Source: Bacteroidota bacterium
Lineage (GTDB): Bacteria; Bacteroidota; Bacteroidia; Palsa-965
Length of the DNA: 64,000 nucleotides
Direction of reading: 5' to 3'
Assembly: GCA_016194975.1 (NCBI GenBank)
Contig: JACQAM010000023.1
Coordinates: 186,001-250,000, forward strand
This document shows, piece after piece, positions 26,080 through 32,480 of this stretch. The number at the start of each line of letters is the position of its first letter. Position 1 is the first letter of the stretch. The notes below the pieces were generated by a model. It was not told where the DNA came from. It was given only the letters and a program-made list of their open reading frames with translations, and made no database searches. The translations under genes and the position numbers were made by a program.

Positions 26080-26616
26080 TTATAAAAAAGATTCCGAAAT
26101 AATTTTCCACCGGCCTTCATCCAGCCGCAGAAGCGAGATGCAGTCGGCGATAAATATTTCCATGAAAGTTCTGTTTTTATAATCGTCCCACGCCTGATGA
26201 AAATCCACTTCCTTCCAATCACGATTGCCAATGGTCATATGCGGATGAAAATTCTTTTCTTCATTCGCTTTTTTCATTCCACGCACATTCATGAAACCAT
26301 TTACAACCGCTGTGTGAATTCGTTTCAATTCCTCTGAAGGAATAACGTTAATAAAAAGAACACGCGGTGGAAAACATGAAAAATTTTCCAGTTTCACATC
26401 GAAAGAAAAAATTCCTTTTGCACAGGAAGAAAGCGCATCTGTAAGTTGTGATTCTTCTGCAGGGTCAAAATTGAACGGAGAAAACAAGGTGATATGAACC
26501 GGAGCTTTCAACGCAGCTTTTGTTCCGAACCTGAGGAAAAGATCTTCCTTCATCTGCTGTGCTTTTTCATTCACAGAGGCAGGAGCAACGATCGCTACGA
26601 AATAATATTTCTTCAC
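26080..26616 (-). CDS. 2'-5' RNA ligase / cyclic phosphodiesterase family protein
   Basis: 178 aa. Two HxT motifs define the 2H phosphoesterase fold: HITLFSPF (about residue 42) and HMTIGNRDW (about residue 123). LigT/ThpR-like proteins open 2',3'-cyclic phosphates or cyclise RNA ends; the true substrate is unknown. The start is ATG directly after a poly-A tract. It sits between the FKBP array and the CDF gene, 34 and 38 nt from each. Confidence 0.85.
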   Translation of the reverse strand: MKKYYFVAIVAPASVNEKAQQMKEDLFLRFGTKAALKAPVHITLFSPFNFDPAEESQLTDALSSCAKGIFSFDVKLENFSCFPPRVLFINVIPSEELKRIHTAVVNGFMNVRGMKKANEEKNFHPHMTIGNRDWKEVDFHQAWDDYKNRTFMEIFIADCISLLRLDEGRWKIISESFL

Positions 26617-26650: not shown

Positions 26651-27538
26651 TTATTTCACTTCCAATAACTGTACATCGAAAATGAGAGTTGATCGCGGAG
26701 GTATCACACCGGGATAACCCATTTCACCATAGCCGAGGGAAAACGGAATGATGAGTTGTGCTTTATCTCCTTCATGCATCATCATAATTCCTTCGGCCCA
26801 TCCTTTGATCACCGGATCAGTTCCCAGCGTAAATGTAAATGGCTGATCGCGTTCCACCGAAGAGTCGAAAGGATAACCATCGATGAGAAATCCATCGTAA
26901 TGTACTGTTACTTTGTTCCCGTTCTTCGCCATTTTTCCATCGGGATGAGAATCCAAAAAAATAATTTTTAATCCCGAAGGAGTTTTGATCGTGTCTTTTC
27001 CTGTGGCATTCCACGGAACAGAATGCGGTTGAACGCTGATCACTTCAACCTGAAATTTCAAATTACTATTCGGAGGAATTTTTCCATTGATACGCGAACC
27101 GTATCCATACTTCGAAGGAAGATACATTTCCGCCACATCGCCACCATGCAATCGCAGTACGACAGAATCCCATCCCGCTATCACTTCATGTTTGCAAAGA
27201 TGAAAAGATAGCGGTTGATTATTGTGATGATAAGTTGCGTCGAAAACAGTATCATTCATCAATCTCCCGACATACCTCATCGTCACTTTATCCCATTTTT
27301 GAATTGCAGGACCATTACCTTTTGCTTTGATGTGATAACGGATCCCATCTGAAATATTTATCCAGCTTGTATCATGATTTAAAACTGCAGTATATTTTCT
27401 GGCGATGCCATCATCCGGCGGAACGTAAGCTTCATTCACAAAACTTTTATCAGCTGGTTTTGTTTTTTTCTTCGTGATGAAACAACCGGCAAGAAAAATA
27501 ATTCCCGCAAGCGGAAAAATAAAATGATAGCTTCTCAT
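26651..27538 (-). CDS. Two-domain FKBP-type peptidyl-prolyl isomerase lipoprotein
   Basis: 295 aa. The lipobox LAGC puts the lipid Cys at 19. Two full FKBP domains follow. In domain 1 the FKBP12-like active residues are kept: Tyr in MRYVGRL, Phe-Asp in VFDATY, VIAGWD and YGYGS. Domain 2 is also intact (VHYDGFL, PFDSS, VIKGWAEG, LGYGEMGYPG). It should be an active isomerase/chaperone of the cell envelope. It is the last of five consecutive FKBP genes, starting 3 nt after its neighbour's stop. Confidence 0.9.
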   Translation of the reverse strand: MRSYHFIFPLAGIIFLAGCFITKKKTKPADKSFVNEAYVPPDDGIARKYTAVLNHDTSWINISDGIRYHIKAKGNGPAIQKWDKVTMRYVGRLMNDTVFDATYHHNNQPLSFHLCKHEVIAGWDSVVLRLHGGDVAEMYLPSKYGYGSRINGKIPPNSNLKFQVEVISVQPHSVPWNATGKDTIKTPSGLKIIFLDSHPDGKMAKNGNKVTVHYDGFLIDGYPFDSSVERDQPFTFTLGTDPVIKGWAEGIMMMHEGDKAQLIIPFSLGYGEMGYPGVIPPRSTLIFDVQLLEVK

Positions 27539-27541
27539 GGT

Positions 27542-28504
27542 TCAGTGCTGGCTGGGTTGCGCGGAAATAATTTCCACTTCGAACACACGCGTGAGTCCGT
27601 CCTTGTATGCCATGCCGGAAGGCAGAACGAAAATTGCTTTTTCGCCCAGGTGCATTTTGTAAATGCATTTTGTAAAACCGAGGATCATCGGATCGATGCC
27701 GAGTGTGAACGTCAGCGGTTGTTGTCCTTCCACCATTGTGTTTGAATCGAAAACGGTTCCGTCGAGAAATTTTCCGGTGTAAAGCACGCCTACTTTTGTA
27801 AATAATTTCAACGCATCGCCGGTACCGGGTTTGATAGTCTGAAAATAAATACTGTCTTCGTCGGGAGGAGTATTGAATCCATACTGGATCAGAAATGGTT
27901 TCAGCAATTCCTTATCCTTCGCTTTCAATTCCGGTTCTTTTGCTTTCGCCTGTTGCTGCACCTGTCCCATCACTTGGTTGATCTTCTGCTGAACAGCTTG
28001 TTTCGCCGCCTGCTCACGCTGTCCTTTCGCTTTGAGCGAATCAATCATCACGCGCGAAAAAACACTGTCCACTTTCACAGCGAAACCGATGTACTTCATT
28101 GAATCGACATGCTGCTGGAATTTAAAATCATTCGGGTAATATTTCCTGAGTGTATCATACTGAATGAAAAAACAGGAACTGTCGCCCGCGTGCATGTGCA
28201 TGAACATGTCCATGAAATCTCCTTTGAAGAGCGGCTTTTTTATGAGAATGGGAAATGAACTTGCCTGTGCATTGGCATTTACATCGAGAAAAACAGAATC
28301 TTTCTCAGTTTTGAATTTCACTTTCACAAAAACCGCGCCCCCTGTATCAGCAAGAATTTTTCCTGTTCCTGCAGCGAATTGTTTTACGTAAGTGTCCTGG
28401 CTGTATTTTTTGTAACCCGGGAAAAGTTCTTTGGGTTCTTTCTTGAATGAGAAGAAAAGAAATCCGAAAATAAAAAGAGTGGCAACTAAAAAAACTTTTC
28501 TCAT
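27542..28504 (-). CDS. FKBP-type isomerase, degenerate N-domain plus C-terminal FKBP domain
   Basis: 320 aa. A hydrophobic N-terminus (FLVATLFIFGFLFF) has no Cys, so it is a cleaved or uncleaved anchor, unlike its lipoprotein neighbours. After a PGYKKYSQ word comes a degenerate FKBP-like domain (FKGDFMDMFMHMHAGDS), then a Gln/Lys/Ala-rich helical linker, and a C-terminal FKBP domain with LYTGKF, VFDSN and MILGFT. The active-site Trp is Phe here. It is clearly paralogous to the next gene (28517-29515), sharing the KGDFMD and KDSVF words. Confidence 0.88.
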   Translation of the reverse strand: MRKVFLVATLFIFGFLFFSFKKEPKELFPGYKKYSQDTYVKQFAAGTGKILADTGGAVFVKVKFKTEKDSVFLDVNANAQASSFPILIKKPLFKGDFMDMFMHMHAGDSSCFFIQYDTLRKYYPNDFKFQQHVDSMKYIGFAVKVDSVFSRVMIDSLKAKGQREQAAKQAVQQKINQVMGQVQQQAKAKEPELKAKDKELLKPFLIQYGFNTPPDEDSIYFQTIKPGTGDALKLFTKVGVLYTGKFLDGTVFDSNTMVEGQQPLTFTLGIDPMILGFTKCIYKMHLGEKAIFVLPSGMAYKDGLTRVFEVEIISAQPSQH

Positions 28505-28516
28505 TACTGAAAATTT

Positions 28517-29515
28517 TTATTTATGCATAGCGGGCATTCCAGCGTCAATAACTTCAACGTTGAATACGCGCGTAATGGAATCCTGGTAACCCATCGCCGG
28601 CGGAATGATCAGTGTGCCTTTTCCGCCTTTTTTCATTTTCATTACGCCATTGGTAAAACCGGTGATCATCTGGTCAACGCCGAGTTGAAAAGTGAGCAGA
28701 TCCTGTTGTGGTGATAATTCGTTCGTGTCAAAGATCGTACCATCGAGATATTTTCCGGTGTAGCGTAAACTTACCGTCATTCCGAATTGAATGGCCTCAT
28801 TTGTTCCCGGCGAATTTTCGATATAATAGATTCCATCTTTATCAGGTTTCACCGTCACGTGATTATCGGCGAGATATTTCTTCAGCAATTTTGCATCCTG
28901 CTTTTTCATTTCCGGCGCCATCATTTGCGCTTTCTGGCGAATGGAGCCGAGCGAATCCTGTATGACCTGCATGATATGCATCTGGCGATTTCCTTCTGCA
29001 ACAAAATCGTCCCATTTTTTTTTCGTATAAATGCTATCGACGCGCAATGCAAAACCAATGTATTTCATCGTATCATACTTCGGTTCTTTAAAACTGAATT
29101 TACTTTTTACGTGCGGCCCGCCCTGCTGATCATACACCGTGTCCACATAATATTTCTGAAGTGAATCAAGGCGAATGAAAAATGAAGCGCTGTCTCCCTT
29201 ATGGAATTTCGTCATCACGTCCATGAAATCTCCTTTGTACTTGAATTTTGAGAGCGGGATCGGGAAAGCCATTCCGGGTTGACGCGGATTTGCATTGAGG
29301 TCCATGAACACAGAATCTTTTGCGTCCTTGAATTTGAGATGAACGAACATAGCGCCACCCACTTCACAGGTCTTTCCTTTGTCTGCACTGGTTTTCATCA
29401 TGAGCAACCAACTGCCGTGTCCCTGATCTTCGTAACCTGGAAAAGGAGATTCATCCGCGCAGGAAACGATGAGAAATGCTGCGACAATCGCGATAGGGAA
29501 AATAATTTTTTTCAT
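28517..29515 (-). CDS. FKBP-type isomerase lipoprotein, degenerate N-domain plus FKBP domain
   Basis: 332 aa. Lipobox IVSC (Cys19), then PFPGYEDQG. The N-terminal domain (about 45-150) is FKBP-like but lacks the catalytic set; the helical linker (about 165-215) has many Met/Gln/Lys. The C-terminal FKBP domain has LRYTGKY, IFDTN, MITGFT (Trp to Phe) and a shortened YQD loop. Together with 27542-28504 it looks like a tandem duplication. Likely periplasmic face of the outer membrane; chaperone role inferred. Confidence 0.88.
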   Translation of the reverse strand: MKKIIFPIAIVAAFLIVSCADESPFPGYEDQGHGSWLLMMKTSADKGKTCEVGGAMFVHLKFKDAKDSVFMDLNANPRQPGMAFPIPLSKFKYKGDFMDVMTKFHKGDSASFFIRLDSLQKYYVDTVYDQQGGPHVKSKFSFKEPKYDTMKYIGFALRVDSIYTKKKWDDFVAEGNRQMHIMQVIQDSLGSIRQKAQMMAPEMKKQDAKLLKKYLADNHVTVKPDKDGIYYIENSPGTNEAIQFGMTVSLRYTGKYLDGTIFDTNELSPQQDLLTFQLGVDQMITGFTNGVMKMKKGGKGTLIIPPAMGYQDSITRVFNVEVIDAGMPAMHK

Positions 29516-29529
29516 TATGATTTTTGAAT

Positions 29530-30354
29530 TTATTGAACGGAAACCAATTCGATTTCGTAAATGACCGGTGTATGCGGCGGAACAATTCCATTACTGGATC
29601 CATTGGTGCCGAAAGCCAGCGCCGAAGGTAGGATTATTTTCGCTTTTGCTCCTGCTTTCATTCGGTGAAGGGCCTGTTCTAATCCCGGCAAAACCTGGTC
29701 GGGCTGTCCCCATGTAAATGAGAATGGTTTGTTTTCAGCGCGCGTGTCATCGAACATCACACCGTTCATCAGGGTTCCCGTGTAATGAATGACAATTGTT
29801 TTTCCTGTCGATGGCTTTTCACCGATGCCTTCTTTCTCCGATTGAAATATCAATCCTGTACTGTCCTGAGCGCAATTGATTTTATTTTTTTTCATGTAAC
29901 GCTGAATGATCATCTGCTCATCGAGATCAGGATCGCGGTTCTCTGAAATTTTTTCATACGCTGCTTCATTCACAATGCGGATCACCTTCACATTCATTTC
30001 CACTGTTCCCGTATCCGGCGTTCCGATCATGTGAAGATCTCCGCCGGGAAGCATGAATGTAGCGCTGTCTCCTTCGGAGAGCACACTGAAGTACGGACTC
30101 GTGGACGCCTGGACGAAAAGTGTTCCTGTTCCGGTTTGAAATTCGGAATCGTAAAAAACTTTTCCGCCATATTTATTCTGCATGCGGATCTCGTAGTAAT
30201 CATTCTCTCCGGCTTTTTTGCCGGATTCACCGGGAATATGAAGTTTATAGAAAACACCTTTGGCAGCTTCCGTAAAACCGGGATACTTCGCATCATCGCA
30301 CGAGAAAAAAAAGAACACAGGAAATAATGCGGGGAGAATAACTGTTTTTTTCAT
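29530..30354 (-). CDS. FKBP-type isomerase lipoprotein with altered active site
   Basis: 274 aa. Lipobox FFSC (Cys19), then KYPGFTEAAKG, matching the PG[YF] word of the two genes downstream. A degenerate FKBP-like N-domain ends near LPGGDLH. The C-terminal FKBP domain has IHYTGTL and MFDDTR, but Trp is Leu (VLPGLEQ) and the loop Tyr is Phe (LAFGTNG). Reduced isomerase activity is possible. Its start overlaps the stop of the upstream 175-aa gene (ATGA), a sign of coupled translation. Confidence 0.88.
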   Translation of the reverse strand: MKKTVILPALFPVFFFFSCDDAKYPGFTEAAKGVFYKLHIPGESGKKAGENDYYEIRMQNKYGGKVFYDSEFQTGTGTLFVQASTSPYFSVLSEGDSATFMLPGGDLHMIGTPDTGTVEMNVKVIRIVNEAAYEKISENRDPDLDEQMIIQRYMKKNKINCAQDSTGLIFQSEKEGIGEKPSTGKTIVIHYTGTLMNGVMFDDTRAENKPFSFTWGQPDQVLPGLEQALHRMKAGAKAKIILPSALAFGTNGSSNGIVPPHTPVIYEIELVSVQ

Positions 30355-30878
30355 TCTTTTTTTCTTAATGAAATTAATTCCACTTCATACACCACGCTCG
30401 AAAGCGGCGGAATTTTTTTTTCGTCGCCGGTAAGTCCCTGCGCGAGATGCGATGGAAGAATGAATCGTGCCTGGTCGCCCACGTGCATAAGTTGTATTCC
30501 TTCATGAATTCCATATTCCACGTAATCTTCTCCAATGAGAAATTCTTTTGCCGAATCTTTTTTGGTTTCGTAGCAAACTGTTCCGTCAAGCAGGTAAATT
30601 TTAAAATAAACTTTCGCGAACATTCCGCTCTTTGCCTGTTCACCGTTTCCTTTTTTCAGGAACATGTAACGCAACCCCGTTGGGGTTTCCTGCATCTGCC
30701 AGTTATGATTTTTGATGTATTGATTGATCTCATCATTCTGCCGCTTCTCATCCCACGTGTTCATCTGCAGCGAGAGCGTGTGCATCTGCTGTTTCGAGAT
30801 CGGCTGCTTCTTCGGTTTCCCCTGCTCACCGCAAGATACGATCAGAAAAATAAGAAGGAAAAAAATGGAACGGAGCAT
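30351..30878 (-). CDS. GldI-like FKBP-fold lipoprotein with lost catalytic residues
   Basis: 175 aa. Lipobox IVSC gives lipid Cys16. A helical Gln/Met-rich stretch (about 24-60) precedes one FKBP domain. The Phe-Asp pair is replaced (TVCYET), the Trp site reads YGIHEG, and the loop Tyr is gone (LAQGLTG), so classical isomerase activity looks lost. In flavobacteria, gldI (a gliding/type IX secretion FKBP lipoprotein) sits next to a DHH phosphoesterase gene and ndk, as here; hence the GldI-like label from context. It is the first of the five-gene array, 25 nt after nrnA. Confidence 0.8.
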   Translation of the reverse strand: MLRSIFFLLIFLIVSCGEQGKPKKQPISKQQMHTLSLQMNTWDEKRQNDEINQYIKNHNWQMQETPTGLRYMFLKKGNGEQAKSGMFAKVYFKIYLLDGTVCYETKKDSAKEFLIGEDYVEYGIHEGIQLMHVGDQARFILPSHLAQGLTGDEKKIPPLSSVVYEVELISLRKKE

Positions 30879-30903: not shown

Positions 30904-31914
30904 TCAGGCCTTTTTTAGTCTGGGAAGATAAGCTGGAAGAGCAGTTTTGAATTTTTTAACAACTTCCTCCAATGAAATTTCGAGTTGCCCGCCAGCCGCA
31001 TTACGGTGACCTCCGCCATTGAAATTGGCACGTGCAAATTCATTTACATCGAAATTTCCTTTGGAGCGAAACGAACATTTTATTTTTCCGTCGCGCTCAG
31101 CAAAAAATGCTGAAAAAACAATTCCCTTCATAGTAAGGCCATAATTCACGAGTCCTTCGGTATCTCCTTTTTCATAATGAAAACGATCCTGCTCTGCTTC
31201 ACTCAATGTAAAAAAAGCAGTATGCATTTCAGGGATTACTTCCATTTTTTCACTCAAGGCATAACCAAGTAGCCGAATGCGGAATTCCGAATTATCATCG
31301 TACACGCGCACGTGGTTGAGCGCGGCATCTGCACCTGCCTCCATGAGTGCGGCCGCCACGCGCATGGTTTTCGGTGTGGTACTCGGAAAACGAAATGAGC
31401 CGGTGTCGGTCATGATTCCTGTATAGAGACAATCGGCAATGTGGCGATCGATCTTTTTCTTGCCGCCGAGCGAAAGAATAAGATCGTAAATGAGTTCGGC
31501 GGTAGAAGAAGATTCCACGCGATGAAAAGAATACTGCGCGAAGCTTAAAGGATTCGGGTGATGATCGATGAGCACTTTCGGAATATCTAATTTCAAAATT
31601 TTATCGCCAAGCGAATTGATCCTTTTCAGGTCATTGAAATCGAGACAGAAAATGATCTCTGAATTCTCCAGCAGTTTTTCCGCTTTATTTTTATTCTTCA
31701 TCGCATCAGTCACTTTAGAATGGCCGTGCATCCAATGGAGAAAAGCAGGATATTCATTGGGAACGATCACCTGTGCATCATGTCCGCATTTAATGAGATA
31801 ATTCCAGAGTCCGAGTGAAGAACCTATGGCATCACCATCGGGAGACCAGTGTGTGACAATGGCGATCTTTCTTTTTTTAGCAAGAAATTTTTTGAGTGTG
31901 GAGGCGTCGCTCAA
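30904..31914 (-). CDS. nrnA: DHH/DHHA1 phosphoesterase (NrnA-like nanoRNase/pAp phosphatase)
   Basis: About 336 aa from the chosen TTG (MSDASTLKKFL). The DHH domain has HWSPDGDAIGSSLG, CLDFN and the DHHPNP motif; the DHHA1 domain ends with GGGHRNAAGG. NrnA-type enzymes degrade 2-5 nt RNAs and/or dephosphorylate pAp. The only ATG of the frame (32079) would overlap ndk and its promoter on the other strand, so a non-ATG start is favoured; this is uncertain. It heads the minus-strand run that contains the FKBP array. Confidence 0.88.
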   Translation of the reverse strand: MSDASTLKKFLAKKRKIAIVTHWSPDGDAIGSSLGLWNYLIKCGHDAQVIVPNEYPAFLHWMHGHSKVTDAMKNKNKAEKLLENSEIIFCLDFNDLKRINSLGDKILKLDIPKVLIDHHPNPLSFAQYSFHRVESSSTAELIYDLILSLGGKKKIDRHIADCLYTGIMTDTGSFRFPSTTPKTMRVAAALMEAGADAALNHVRVYDDNSEFRIRLLGYALSEKMEVIPEMHTAFFTLSEAEQDRFHYEKGDTEGLVNYGLTMKGIVFSAFFAERDGKIKCSFRSKGNFDVNEFARANFNGGGHRNAAGGQLEISLEEVVKKFKTALPAYLPRLKKA

Positions 31915-32006
31915 ATGCAGAAAATATTTGGTGTGCGTTTTTTTTGGTTGACGTTCAAAGTTACGCGAAAGGACCGATGAACGATATTCTGAAAATGAAA
32001 AATGCT

Positions 32007-32014
32007 TACTTTTG
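32007..32014 (+). promoter_or_regulatory. -7 box of ndk
   Basis: TACTTTTG fits TAnnTTTG, 46 nt before the ndk ATG. It also lies inside the implausible 5' extension of the divergent nrnA frame. Confidence 0.5.
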
Positions 32015-32060
32015 CCCGCGAAATTATCGGGAAATGCCCGTGCAATAACCAAAGAATAAA

Positions 32061-32480
32061 ATGGCAACGAACAGAACATTCACCATGATCAAACCCGATG
32101 CGGTTGGCAACAATTACATCGGCCCCATACTTGCAAAGATCAACGAAGCAGGATTCCGCATTGTGGCAATGAAGTACACCAAACTTTCAGCGGAGATGGC
32201 GGGAAAATTCTACGAAGTGCATAAAGAGCGTGGATTTTATAAAGAGCTGGTCGATTATATGTCGTCGGGCCCCATCGTGGCGGCAATCCTCGAGAGAGAT
32301 GATGCAGTTGCTTCTTTTCGAAAACTCATTGGCGCAACCGATCCGTCGAAAGCAGAACCGGGAACGATCCGCGCTTTGTATGCGAAATCAATTGCGGCGA
32401 ATGCTGTTCATGGTTCGGATAGTGATGAGAATGCCGCGATCGAAGGAAATTTTTTCTTTTCAATGACAGAAAGATTCTGA
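32061..32480 (+). CDS. ndk: Nucleoside diphosphate kinase
   Basis: 139 aa, normal length. It opens with [10 protein letters not shown] and carries the active-site NAVHGSDS with the phospho-acceptor His at 117, plus [14 protein letters not shown]. It balances NTP and dNTP pools by phosphate transfer. The pairing ndk | nrnA - GldI-like FKBP is a recurrent flavobacterial arrangement (known context). A promoter -7 box is at 32007-32014. Confidence 0.97.

What the first reader, a model, noticed from the sequence alone, without database searches (positions are those of the whole stretch)
26651..30878. Five consecutive FKBP genes with stepwise loss of the isomerase active site
Five FKBP-fold envelope proteins lie in one minus-strand run. 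The last has two intact domains; two have Trp to Phe; one has Trp to Leu and Tyr to Phe; the first (GldI-like) has lost the Phe-Asp pair and loop Tyr. Three share an extra degenerate FKBP-like N-domain with PG[YF] after the lipobox, and 27542-28504 and 28517-29515 are close tandem duplicates. This looks like family expansion with a shift from catalysis to binding, perhaps as type IX secretion or gliding chaperones.
Basis: partly seen in the sequence, partly recalled or inferred. Interest (0 to 1): 0.55.

Follow-up and report, generated by a model that had tools for sequence, protein, structure and literature searches.

The report
Conserved gliding-linked FKBP chaperone gene array
Five neighbouring genes for FKBP-type protein-folding helpers in a Bacteroidota bacterium belong to an old, conserved gene set around a relative of the gliding protein GldI; only that GldI-like protein has clearly lost the enzyme site, while its neighbours keep theirs or variants of it.

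Summary
The five FKBP genes are real and co-directional, in an operon-like run behind a DHH-phosphoesterase gene. Six of the genome's seven FKBP_C matches lie in them; the seventh is SlyD-like. The N-domains of F2-F4 are degenerate FKBP domains (profile comparison 99.4 and 99.8%, controls at most 0.6%). The run is not a recent expansion: FKBP domains sort by gene position, not by genome, and the order DHH-F1-F2-F3-F5 recurs across families. Only F3/F4 is a duplication within the genus (41% identity, not close), and F4 lacks the lipid-anchor cysteine. "Stepwise loss of the isomerase site" is not supported. F5 is intact. F3/F4 conserve their pocket, with Phe59 as in human FKBP12.6 and a shortened 80s loop. 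F2 has Leu59, a common FKBP state. Only F1 has a rebuilt pocket (Phe-Asp to Cys-Tyr). F1 is the GldI orthologue by clade (support 100/96), by position behind DHH (6 of 6 true gldI loci) and by the same Asp37-to-Tyr change, though below GldI's curated score; it is nearly confined to genomes with GldJ (115 of 116). Best reading: an envelope chaperone set in which GldI is a non-catalytic member beside competent FKBPs. The function of F2-F5 is inferred.

The parts
30351..30878 (-). F1: GldI-orthologous lipoprotein (Cys16, codon 30831-30833), helix plus one FKBP domain with rebuilt pocket (Phe36-Asp37 to Cys-Tyr, Trp59 to Ile, Ile56 to Glu, Tyr82 to Gln)
29530..30354 (-). F2: lipoprotein (Cys19, codon 30298-30300), degenerate N-terminal FKBP domain plus C-terminal FKBP domain (Trp59 to Leu, Tyr82 to Phe, Phe99 to Tyr; Phe-Asp kept)
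28517..29515 (-). F3: lipoprotein (Cys19, codon 29459-29461), degenerate N-FKBP, long helix, C-terminal FKBP with Phe59 and shortened 80s loop
29021..29443 (-). F3 N-terminal degenerate FKBP domain (about residues 25-165)
28538..28840 (-). F3 C-terminal FKBP domain (about residues 226-326)
27542..28504 (-). F4: F3 paralogue (41% identity) without lipobox Cys; same domain plan, Phe59 and shortened 80s loop
28445..28447 (-). F4 residue 20 (Phe) at the position where F3 has the lipobox Cys
26651..27538 (-). F5: two FKBP domains with intact pockets; lipobox-like Cys19 (codon 27482-27484)
27029..27361 (-). F5 FKBP domain 1 (residues 60-170)
26654..26989 (-). F5 FKBP domain 2 (residues 184-295)
30904..32079 (-). 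DHH/DHHA1 phosphoesterase, conserved upstream neighbour of F1 (true start probably further in)
32061..32480 (+). ndk, divergent neighbour, often conserved

Best explanation
The run is the gldI locus of this Bacteroidota lineage: an old set of exported FKBP-fold chaperones probably made from one operon. F1 is the GldI orthologue, a lipoprotein whose FKBP pocket has been rebuilt and conserved, so it most likely binds and stabilises partners (in Flavobacterium, GldJ and GldK) without isomerase chemistry. F5 is a two-domain catalytic isomerase, the general foldase of the set. F2 and F3 are lipoproteins with a non-catalytic FKBP domain that I take to be a substrate-binding or docking part, a helical linker (41 residues in the F3 model), and a C-terminal FKBP that keeps a prolyl pocket (in F2 with more changes); this plan resembles FkpA/Mip, with a degenerate FKBP in place of their N-terminal part. 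F4 is a duplicate of F3 that lost its lipid anchor and probably works free in the periplasm. Shown by computation: gene content, order, paralogy, orthology of F1, residue states, domain folds, loss of the anchor Cys. Inferred: one transcript, catalysis, clients and the roles of F2-F5.
For: Five FKBP genes with gaps of 25, -4, 14, 12 and 3 bases from DHH to F5. Of 7 FKBP_C matches in the genome (99.8% complete), 6 lie in these five genes; the seventh is SlyD-like with a His-rich tail. Of 88 F1 genes in 109 distinct loci, 81 come next after DHH among the matched genes and 7 lie in loci where no DHH was found; the exact order F1-F2-F3-F5 occurs in 37 loci, 34 with DHH, from 9 families among the held genomes. 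GldI genes over the NCBIfam cut-off (6 of 197 genomes, all in one family) also follow DHH in 6 of 6 loci and are followed by one or two FKBP-containing genes. F1 and GldI lie on one side of a branch with support 100/96. Asp37 is Tyr in 85 of 88 F1 and, read by eye from the sequences, in 6 of 6 GldI. F1 matches in 116 of 197 genomes, GldJ in 165: together 115, F1 without GldJ 1, GldJ only 50, neither 31, while SprA is found in 191. GldI is reported as required for stability of GldJ and GldK (PMC9127263, passage). The own genome has SprA, GldJ and GldH. Pocket columns are more conserved than the rest in each of the four families.
Against: F1 scores 78 bits against the GldI model, below the cut-off of 157.6. 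F1 was not found in 50 GldJ-positive genomes; three of these (G074, G106, G183) carry a GldI over its own cut-off, the other 47 are unexplained. Four of the 116 F1 hits (G112, G135, G177, G204) are partial matches to 308-371 aa frames, not F1-type genes (read). The co-occurrence is not corrected for kinship beyond a family-level table (Fisher p 1.5e-4). For F2 within the genus (6 rows) the pocket is not more conserved than the rest (6005 of 20000 draws). Nothing here shows clients, activity or a shared transcript; promoter-like and terminator-like sites were at chance level. In Flavobacterium the other T9SS-linked PPI, the translocon subunit, is dispensable for secretion and gliding (PMC9127263, passage). 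F2-F5 have no direct functional evidence.
Confidence: 0.55

Rival explanations
1. A general envelope foldase set with no special tie to gliding: FkpA/Mip-like helpers for outer membrane proteins and lipoproteins at large, GldI being one member recruited for gliding.
For: The F1 and F3 models have Mip and FkpA among their top structural matches. The locus holds six of the genome's seven FKBP_C matches, the seventh being SlyD-like, so envelope folding must be served from here if by FKBPs of this model at all.
Against: F1, the most constant gene, is nearly confined to GldJ-bearing genomes (115 of 116), although SprA and GldH are near universal (191 and 193 of 197).
Confidence: 0.22
2. F2, F3 and/or F5 are extracellular accessory subunits of the BAM complex, as BamJ, BamK and BamM are.
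For: Bacteroidota BAM carries surface lipoproteins with PPI folds (PMC12578637, PMC12611786, passages). F5 scores 156.5 bits against BamJ NF053689, cut-off 100, in two stretches. In the window F2 and F3 have two acidic residues in the first six after the Cys, the feature that PMC12578637 takes as a surface signal.
Against: That signal is not conserved: at least 2 acidic residues in 20 of 82 lipidated F2, 22 of 77 F3 and 0 of 18 F5; only 18 of 80 F5 have a lipobox by the pattern used. The best BamJ stretch on F5 covers BamJ 88-184 only, and the score sums two domains. BamM full length is restricted to Flavobacterium (PMC12611786, passage).
Confidence: 0.15
3. One reading: a recent expansion whose copies step by step lose catalysis and turn into binding proteins.
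For: The residue differences exist; F3/F4 is a within-genus duplication; F1 lacks the Phe-Asp pair; within the F3 family Trp59 became Phe in the genus, with the 80s loop kept in some copies (L012) and lost in others.
Against: The five sort into old groups by position. The changes in F1 and F2 occur across families and are independent of the F3/F4 change. Phe59 and Leu59 are ordinary FKBP states. The F3/F4 pocket is strongly conserved.
Confidence: 0.06

Closest known systems
GldI of Flavobacteriaceae-type genomes (TIGR03516; Fjoh_2369)
   Same: F1: lipoprotein with one FKBP domain, locus behind DHH, same side of a supported branch, Asp37 to Tyr, Leu/Ile at 59
   Different: Below the curated score; position 36 is mostly Cys in F1, Ile (5) or Phe (1) in the six GldI (by eye); tandem FKBP neighbours, where the one GldI locus tested (L162) has cyclophilin-FKBP fusions
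FkpA / Mip periplasmic FKBPs
   Same: C-terminal FKBP behind a helix in F3 (Z 15.8), helix plus FKBP in F1; among the top structural matches
   Different: N-terminal part is a degenerate FKBP domain in F2-F4, and lipid anchors are common in F1-F3
BamJ / BamK / BamM PPIs of the Bacteroidota BAM complex
   Same: PPI fold, exported lipoproteins of Bacteroidota
   Different: No conserved surface signal here, tandem-domain plan, no evidence of BamA contact
PPI subunit of the T9SS translocon (PDB 6h3i chain B)
   Same: FKBP fold (F1 TMt 0.86; F3 Z 14.6, rmsd 3.0, 117 aligned)
   Different: No special closeness: one of many FKBPs of similar score; not among the matches of the two genes after gldI in L162 (E limits 1e-30 and 1e-25)
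Dual-family immunophilins (cyclophilin-linker-FKBP) of Flavobacterium
   Same: Occupy the place after gldI in L162
   Different: Cyclophilin in place of the degenerate N-FKBP

Membership tests
GldI | Score over the curated TIGR03516 cut-off (157.6 bits) | tested here: not met
   F1 78 bits, 77.5 in the genome search; 6 of 197 class genomes reach the cut-off. So I call F1 a GldI orthologue by clade and locus, not a TIGR03516 member.
GldI | One clade with true GldI apart from other FKBPs of the locus | tested here: met
   16 rows (10 F1, 6 GldI) on one side of a branch, support 100/96, unrooted 59-row tree with 111 columns
GldI | Same locus (behind DHH) | tested here: met
   6 of 6 true gldI loci; 81 of 88 F1, the other 7 without a DHH in the locus
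GldI | Needed for gliding and for GldJ/GldK stability | not testable with these tools
   Reported for F. johnsoniae (PMC9127263, passage); here only co-occurrence with GldJ
Active FKBP isomerase: F5 | Tyr26, Phe36, Asp37, Trp59, Tyr82, Phe99 in the pocket | tested here: met
   both domains
Active FKBP isomerase: F3, F4, F2 | Tyr26, Phe36, Asp37, Trp59 or a tolerated residue, Tyr82, Phe99 in the pocket | tested here: inconclusive
   F3/F4 keep all but Trp59 (Phe) and have a shortened 80s loop; F2 has Leu59, Phe82, Tyr99
Active FKBP isomerase: F1 | Phe36-Asp37 pair and Tyr82 | tested here: not met
   Cys-Tyr and Gln
Active FKBP isomerase: F1-F5 | Isomerase activity | not testable with these tools
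   no assay
BamJ | Score over the NF053689 cut-off with full-length coverage | tested here: inconclusive
   F5 156.5 over 100, but as two stretches, the best covering the FKBP part only; F1-F4 below
Surface-exposed lipoprotein (BAM-type SLP) | At least two acidic residues in the first six after the Cys, conserved | tested here: not met
   Met in the window's F2 and F3, not conserved in the families
T9SS translocon PPI | Closest relative of 6h3i chain B | tested here: inconclusive
   Appears among many FKBPs of similar score

The most novel reading that the evidence does not exclude
The gldI locus encodes a dedicated chaperone relay for gliding/T9SS outer-membrane lipoproteins in which GldI itself is a conserved pseudo-isomerase that docks clients such as GldJ and GldK, the adjacent tandem FKBP lipoproteins hold them by a non-catalytic FKBP domain, and catalysis is supplied by F5 (by cyclophilin-FKBP fusions in GldI-type genomes such as that of L162). 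In the window's lineage one holder gene duplicated and its copy was freed from the membrane.
Probability: 0.3. Interest if true: 0.6.

Novelty: new variant of a known kind. Interest (0 to 1): 0.38.

Why it matters
GldI has been known as a gliding lipoprotein with a PPI domain since 2004 (cited in PMC9127263, passage). The replacement of Asp37 by Tyr across the family, beside genes that keep an intact pocket, makes a sharp testable claim: GldI works without isomerase chemistry, and the enzyme work at this locus is done by its neighbours. It would also give a candidate chaperone set for the lipoproteins of the gliding/T9SS machine.

Tried and rejected
Rejected: recent local expansion. Rejected: a Trp59 change as evidence of lost catalysis. 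Rejected: surface exposure as a family trait. Rejected: N-domains as an unrelated fold. Not supported: the two genes after gldI in L162 as the T9SS translocon PPI (at E limits 1e-30 and 1e-25, listed cyclophilin-type matches and no 6h3i); the other five GldI loci were not searched so.

Led nowhere: promoter-like and terminator-like scans at chance (12 against 12.7 expected, 10 against 7.7); PADLOC scan of F3 and F4 empty; literature searches for a described FKBP array at gldI or for GldI as a pseudo-isomerase. In the listings (20, 20, 6 and 10 papers shown) I saw none, and I do not claim that none exists. VIA-align rows cover mainly residues 199-328 of the F3 model, so the N-domain was not tested by that tool. 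The script stopped on an error after printing part of its output; reread its saved results with the error mended.

Limits: one search examined 59 genomes, own included; L008-L047 are 40 stretches that I picked from 38 of them because they hold FKBP matches; one congener, G002 (72% complete), had no FKBP match and is not in the counts. Order counts are therefore conditional on an FKBP or F2 match. Of 121 loci (window included) 12 duplicates were dropped, leaving 109; two of these have DHH without F1 (L021, L046). The structure alignment A4 used 48 of 67 listed F3 proteins plus two of the window, A5 all 43 listed F1 proteins plus that of the window. The domain model was iterated on these same proteins, so its N-domain alignments are not independent; one search is the test for those. 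In one search F1 and F2 each lie on one side of a branch (94 and 98), F3 and F5 need two changes each, and with the FKBPs of the GldI loci added three each; with 110 columns many forks are open. FKBP12 numbering of Phe36, Asp37 and Tyr82 is recalled; Tyr26, Phe46, Phe48, Val55, Ile56, Trp59 and Phe99 are named in PMC3940039 (passages). That the genomes with GldI over the cut-off are Flavobacteriaceae is my inference; they are unnamed.
Full report
What is there. Five minus-strand ORFs run from 30878 to 26651: F1 (175 aa), F2 (274), F3 (332), F4 (320) and F5 (295). Gaps from the DHH gene onward are 25, -4, 14, 12 and 3 bases. All pass the Pfam FKBP_C cut-off and F5 holds two domains; Pfam names no family for the N-terminal parts of F2-F4. 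The genome (4.10 Mb, 28 contigs, 99.8% complete) has seven FKBP_C matches: six in these genes and one elsewhere, a SlyD-like protein with a His-rich tail.

The N-domains. Profile-profile comparison of the N-terminal parts with the FKBP domains of F5 gave 99.4% (E 6.5e-22) for F2 and 99.8% (E 3.4e-28) for F3; six controls with reversed profiles or the DHH family gave at most 0.6%. The F3 model (pLDDT 92.3) aligned over 309-318 columns with two- and three-domain FKBPs such as FKBP52 and wheat FKBP73; the high rmsd (17-20) there I put down to domain arrangement, which was not tested.

An old locus, not a recent burst. I fetched 40 stretches from relatives and 80 loci by similarity to F2, the 80 being titled as metagenome-assembled Bacteroidota genomes. 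Among 109 distinct loci, 81 of 88 F1 genes come next after DHH, the other 7 having no DHH in the locus; the exact order F1-F2-F3-F5 occurs in 37 loci (34 with DHH), which among the held genomes span 9 families, and DHH-F1 spans 16. In a tree of 91 FKBP domains the four labels F1, F2, F3 and F5 need three changes in all, the minimum possible: domains sort by position and not by genome, though F3 and F5 are not each a clean clade and many forks are open. F3 alone has multiplied in the window's genus: one copy in two of the six loci, two in three (window included), three in one. In the 22-row tree F4 groups with the second copies of L008 and L010 (90/91, not starred), the eleven genus copies form one clade (100/100), and the three copies of L012 form their own (100/100).

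F4 lost its anchor. F3 has a lipobox Cys; F4 has Phe there. In the four genus loci with more than one copy, the first copy has the Cys and every later copy lacks it. Over the families, lipoboxes were found in 72 of 87 F1, 82 of 106 F2, 77 of 98 F3 and 18 of 80 F5; a few evident ones were missed by the strict pattern.

The active sites. Mapped on the intact second domain of F5: F5 C-domains keep Trp59 in 81 of 86, Asp37 in 84, Tyr82 in 85. F3 has Trp59 in 70 of 102 and Phe in 20. F2 has Leu, Phe, Ile, Met or Val in 102 of 106 and Trp in 2. F1 has Cys at 36 in 74 of 88, Tyr at 37 in 85, Glu at 56 in 83, Leu/Ile/Val at 59 in 87 and His at 82 in 56. Leu, Ile or Met at 59 is the state of 14 of 22 human FKBP domains and Phe that of FKBP12.6 (PMC3949516, passages), so those changes do not show lost catalysis. 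In the eleven genus copies of F3/F4 the commonest residue reaches 0.91 on average over nine pocket columns against 0.59 elsewhere (3 of 20000 draws as high), with Tyr26, Phe36, Asp37, Phe48 and Tyr82 invariant; column 99 was too gappy to count. What changed there is Phe59 (10 of 11; one copy of L010 has Met) and the 80s loop, shortened in 7 of 11 and kept in L012's three copies and that copy of L010. In F1 the new pocket residues are also conserved (0.82 against 0.60; 37 of 20000), which reads as re-use, not decay. For F2 of the genus alone (6 rows) the pocket is not more conserved than the rest (6005 of 20000), which leaves F2 open.

F1 is GldI. NCBIfam's GldI model gives F1 its best score, but below the cut-off (78 against 157.6). 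In 197 genomes of the class the model passes its cut-off in 6, all in one family. Those six gldI genes lie directly behind DHH and are followed by one or two FKBP-containing genes; in the one locus tested (L162) both are cyclophilin-FKBP fusions. F1 and GldI lie on one side of a branch (100/96) in a 59-row tree. GldI shows Tyr at position 37 in the 6 sequences printed, read by eye. GldI is reported as required for gliding, chitin use and stability of GldJ and GldK (PMC9127263, passage).

Co-occurrence. In the same 197 genomes: SprA in 191, GldH in 193, GldJ in 165 at E 1e-60, F1 in 116 at E 1e-30. F1 and GldJ together 115, F1 alone 1, GldJ alone 50, neither 31 (Fisher p 4e-13); by family 36, 1, 16, 11 (p 1.5e-4). 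The single exception (G177) and three others (G112, G135, G204) are partial matches to longer frames, not F1-type genes. Three of the 50 GldJ-only genomes carry a GldI over its own cut-off. Relatedness is not otherwise corrected for.

Reading. The best account is an exported FKBP chaperone set at the gldI locus: a non-catalytic GldI, a catalytic two-domain F5, and tandem-domain F2/F3 with a helical linker and a prolyl pocket (well kept in F3, changed in F2), F4 being an unanchored copy. F1's mechanism as a docking protein, the clients and the roles of F2-F5 are inferred. Surface-exposed BAM subunits with PPI folds exist in the phylum (PMC12578637, PMC12611786, passages), and F5 passes the BamJ score by two stretches, so a BAM role is a live rival; the surface signal is not conserved.

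Noticed in passing
32061-32079: The longest DHH ORF (391 aa) overlaps the start of the divergent ndk gene; most relatives' DHH ORFs are about 325-370 aa, so its true start is probably further in.
   Followed up: partly
L162:5149-7396: Both genes after a true gldI are cyclophilin-FKBP fusions; PMC6316441 (passage) states that the GldI gene encodes the fusion, whereas here gldI is a separate single-FKBP gene beside them.
   Followed up: partly
L068, L073, L097: F5-type proteins vary greatly in length (about 265 to 660 aa); several relatives (such as L019, L020, L025) carry three FKBP domains.
   Followed up: no
L012:5284-8258: One congener has three F3 copies; two lack the lipobox Cys, a duplication separate from that of the window.
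   Followed up: yes
26080-26616: The 2'-5' RNA ligase gene 34 bases after F5 had no match in the 40 relatives' stretches searched, so it is probably not part of the conserved set.
   Followed up: partly
G000:C16:169348-169503: A second weak SprA match (23.8 bits) inside a 1170-aa frame.
   Followed up: no
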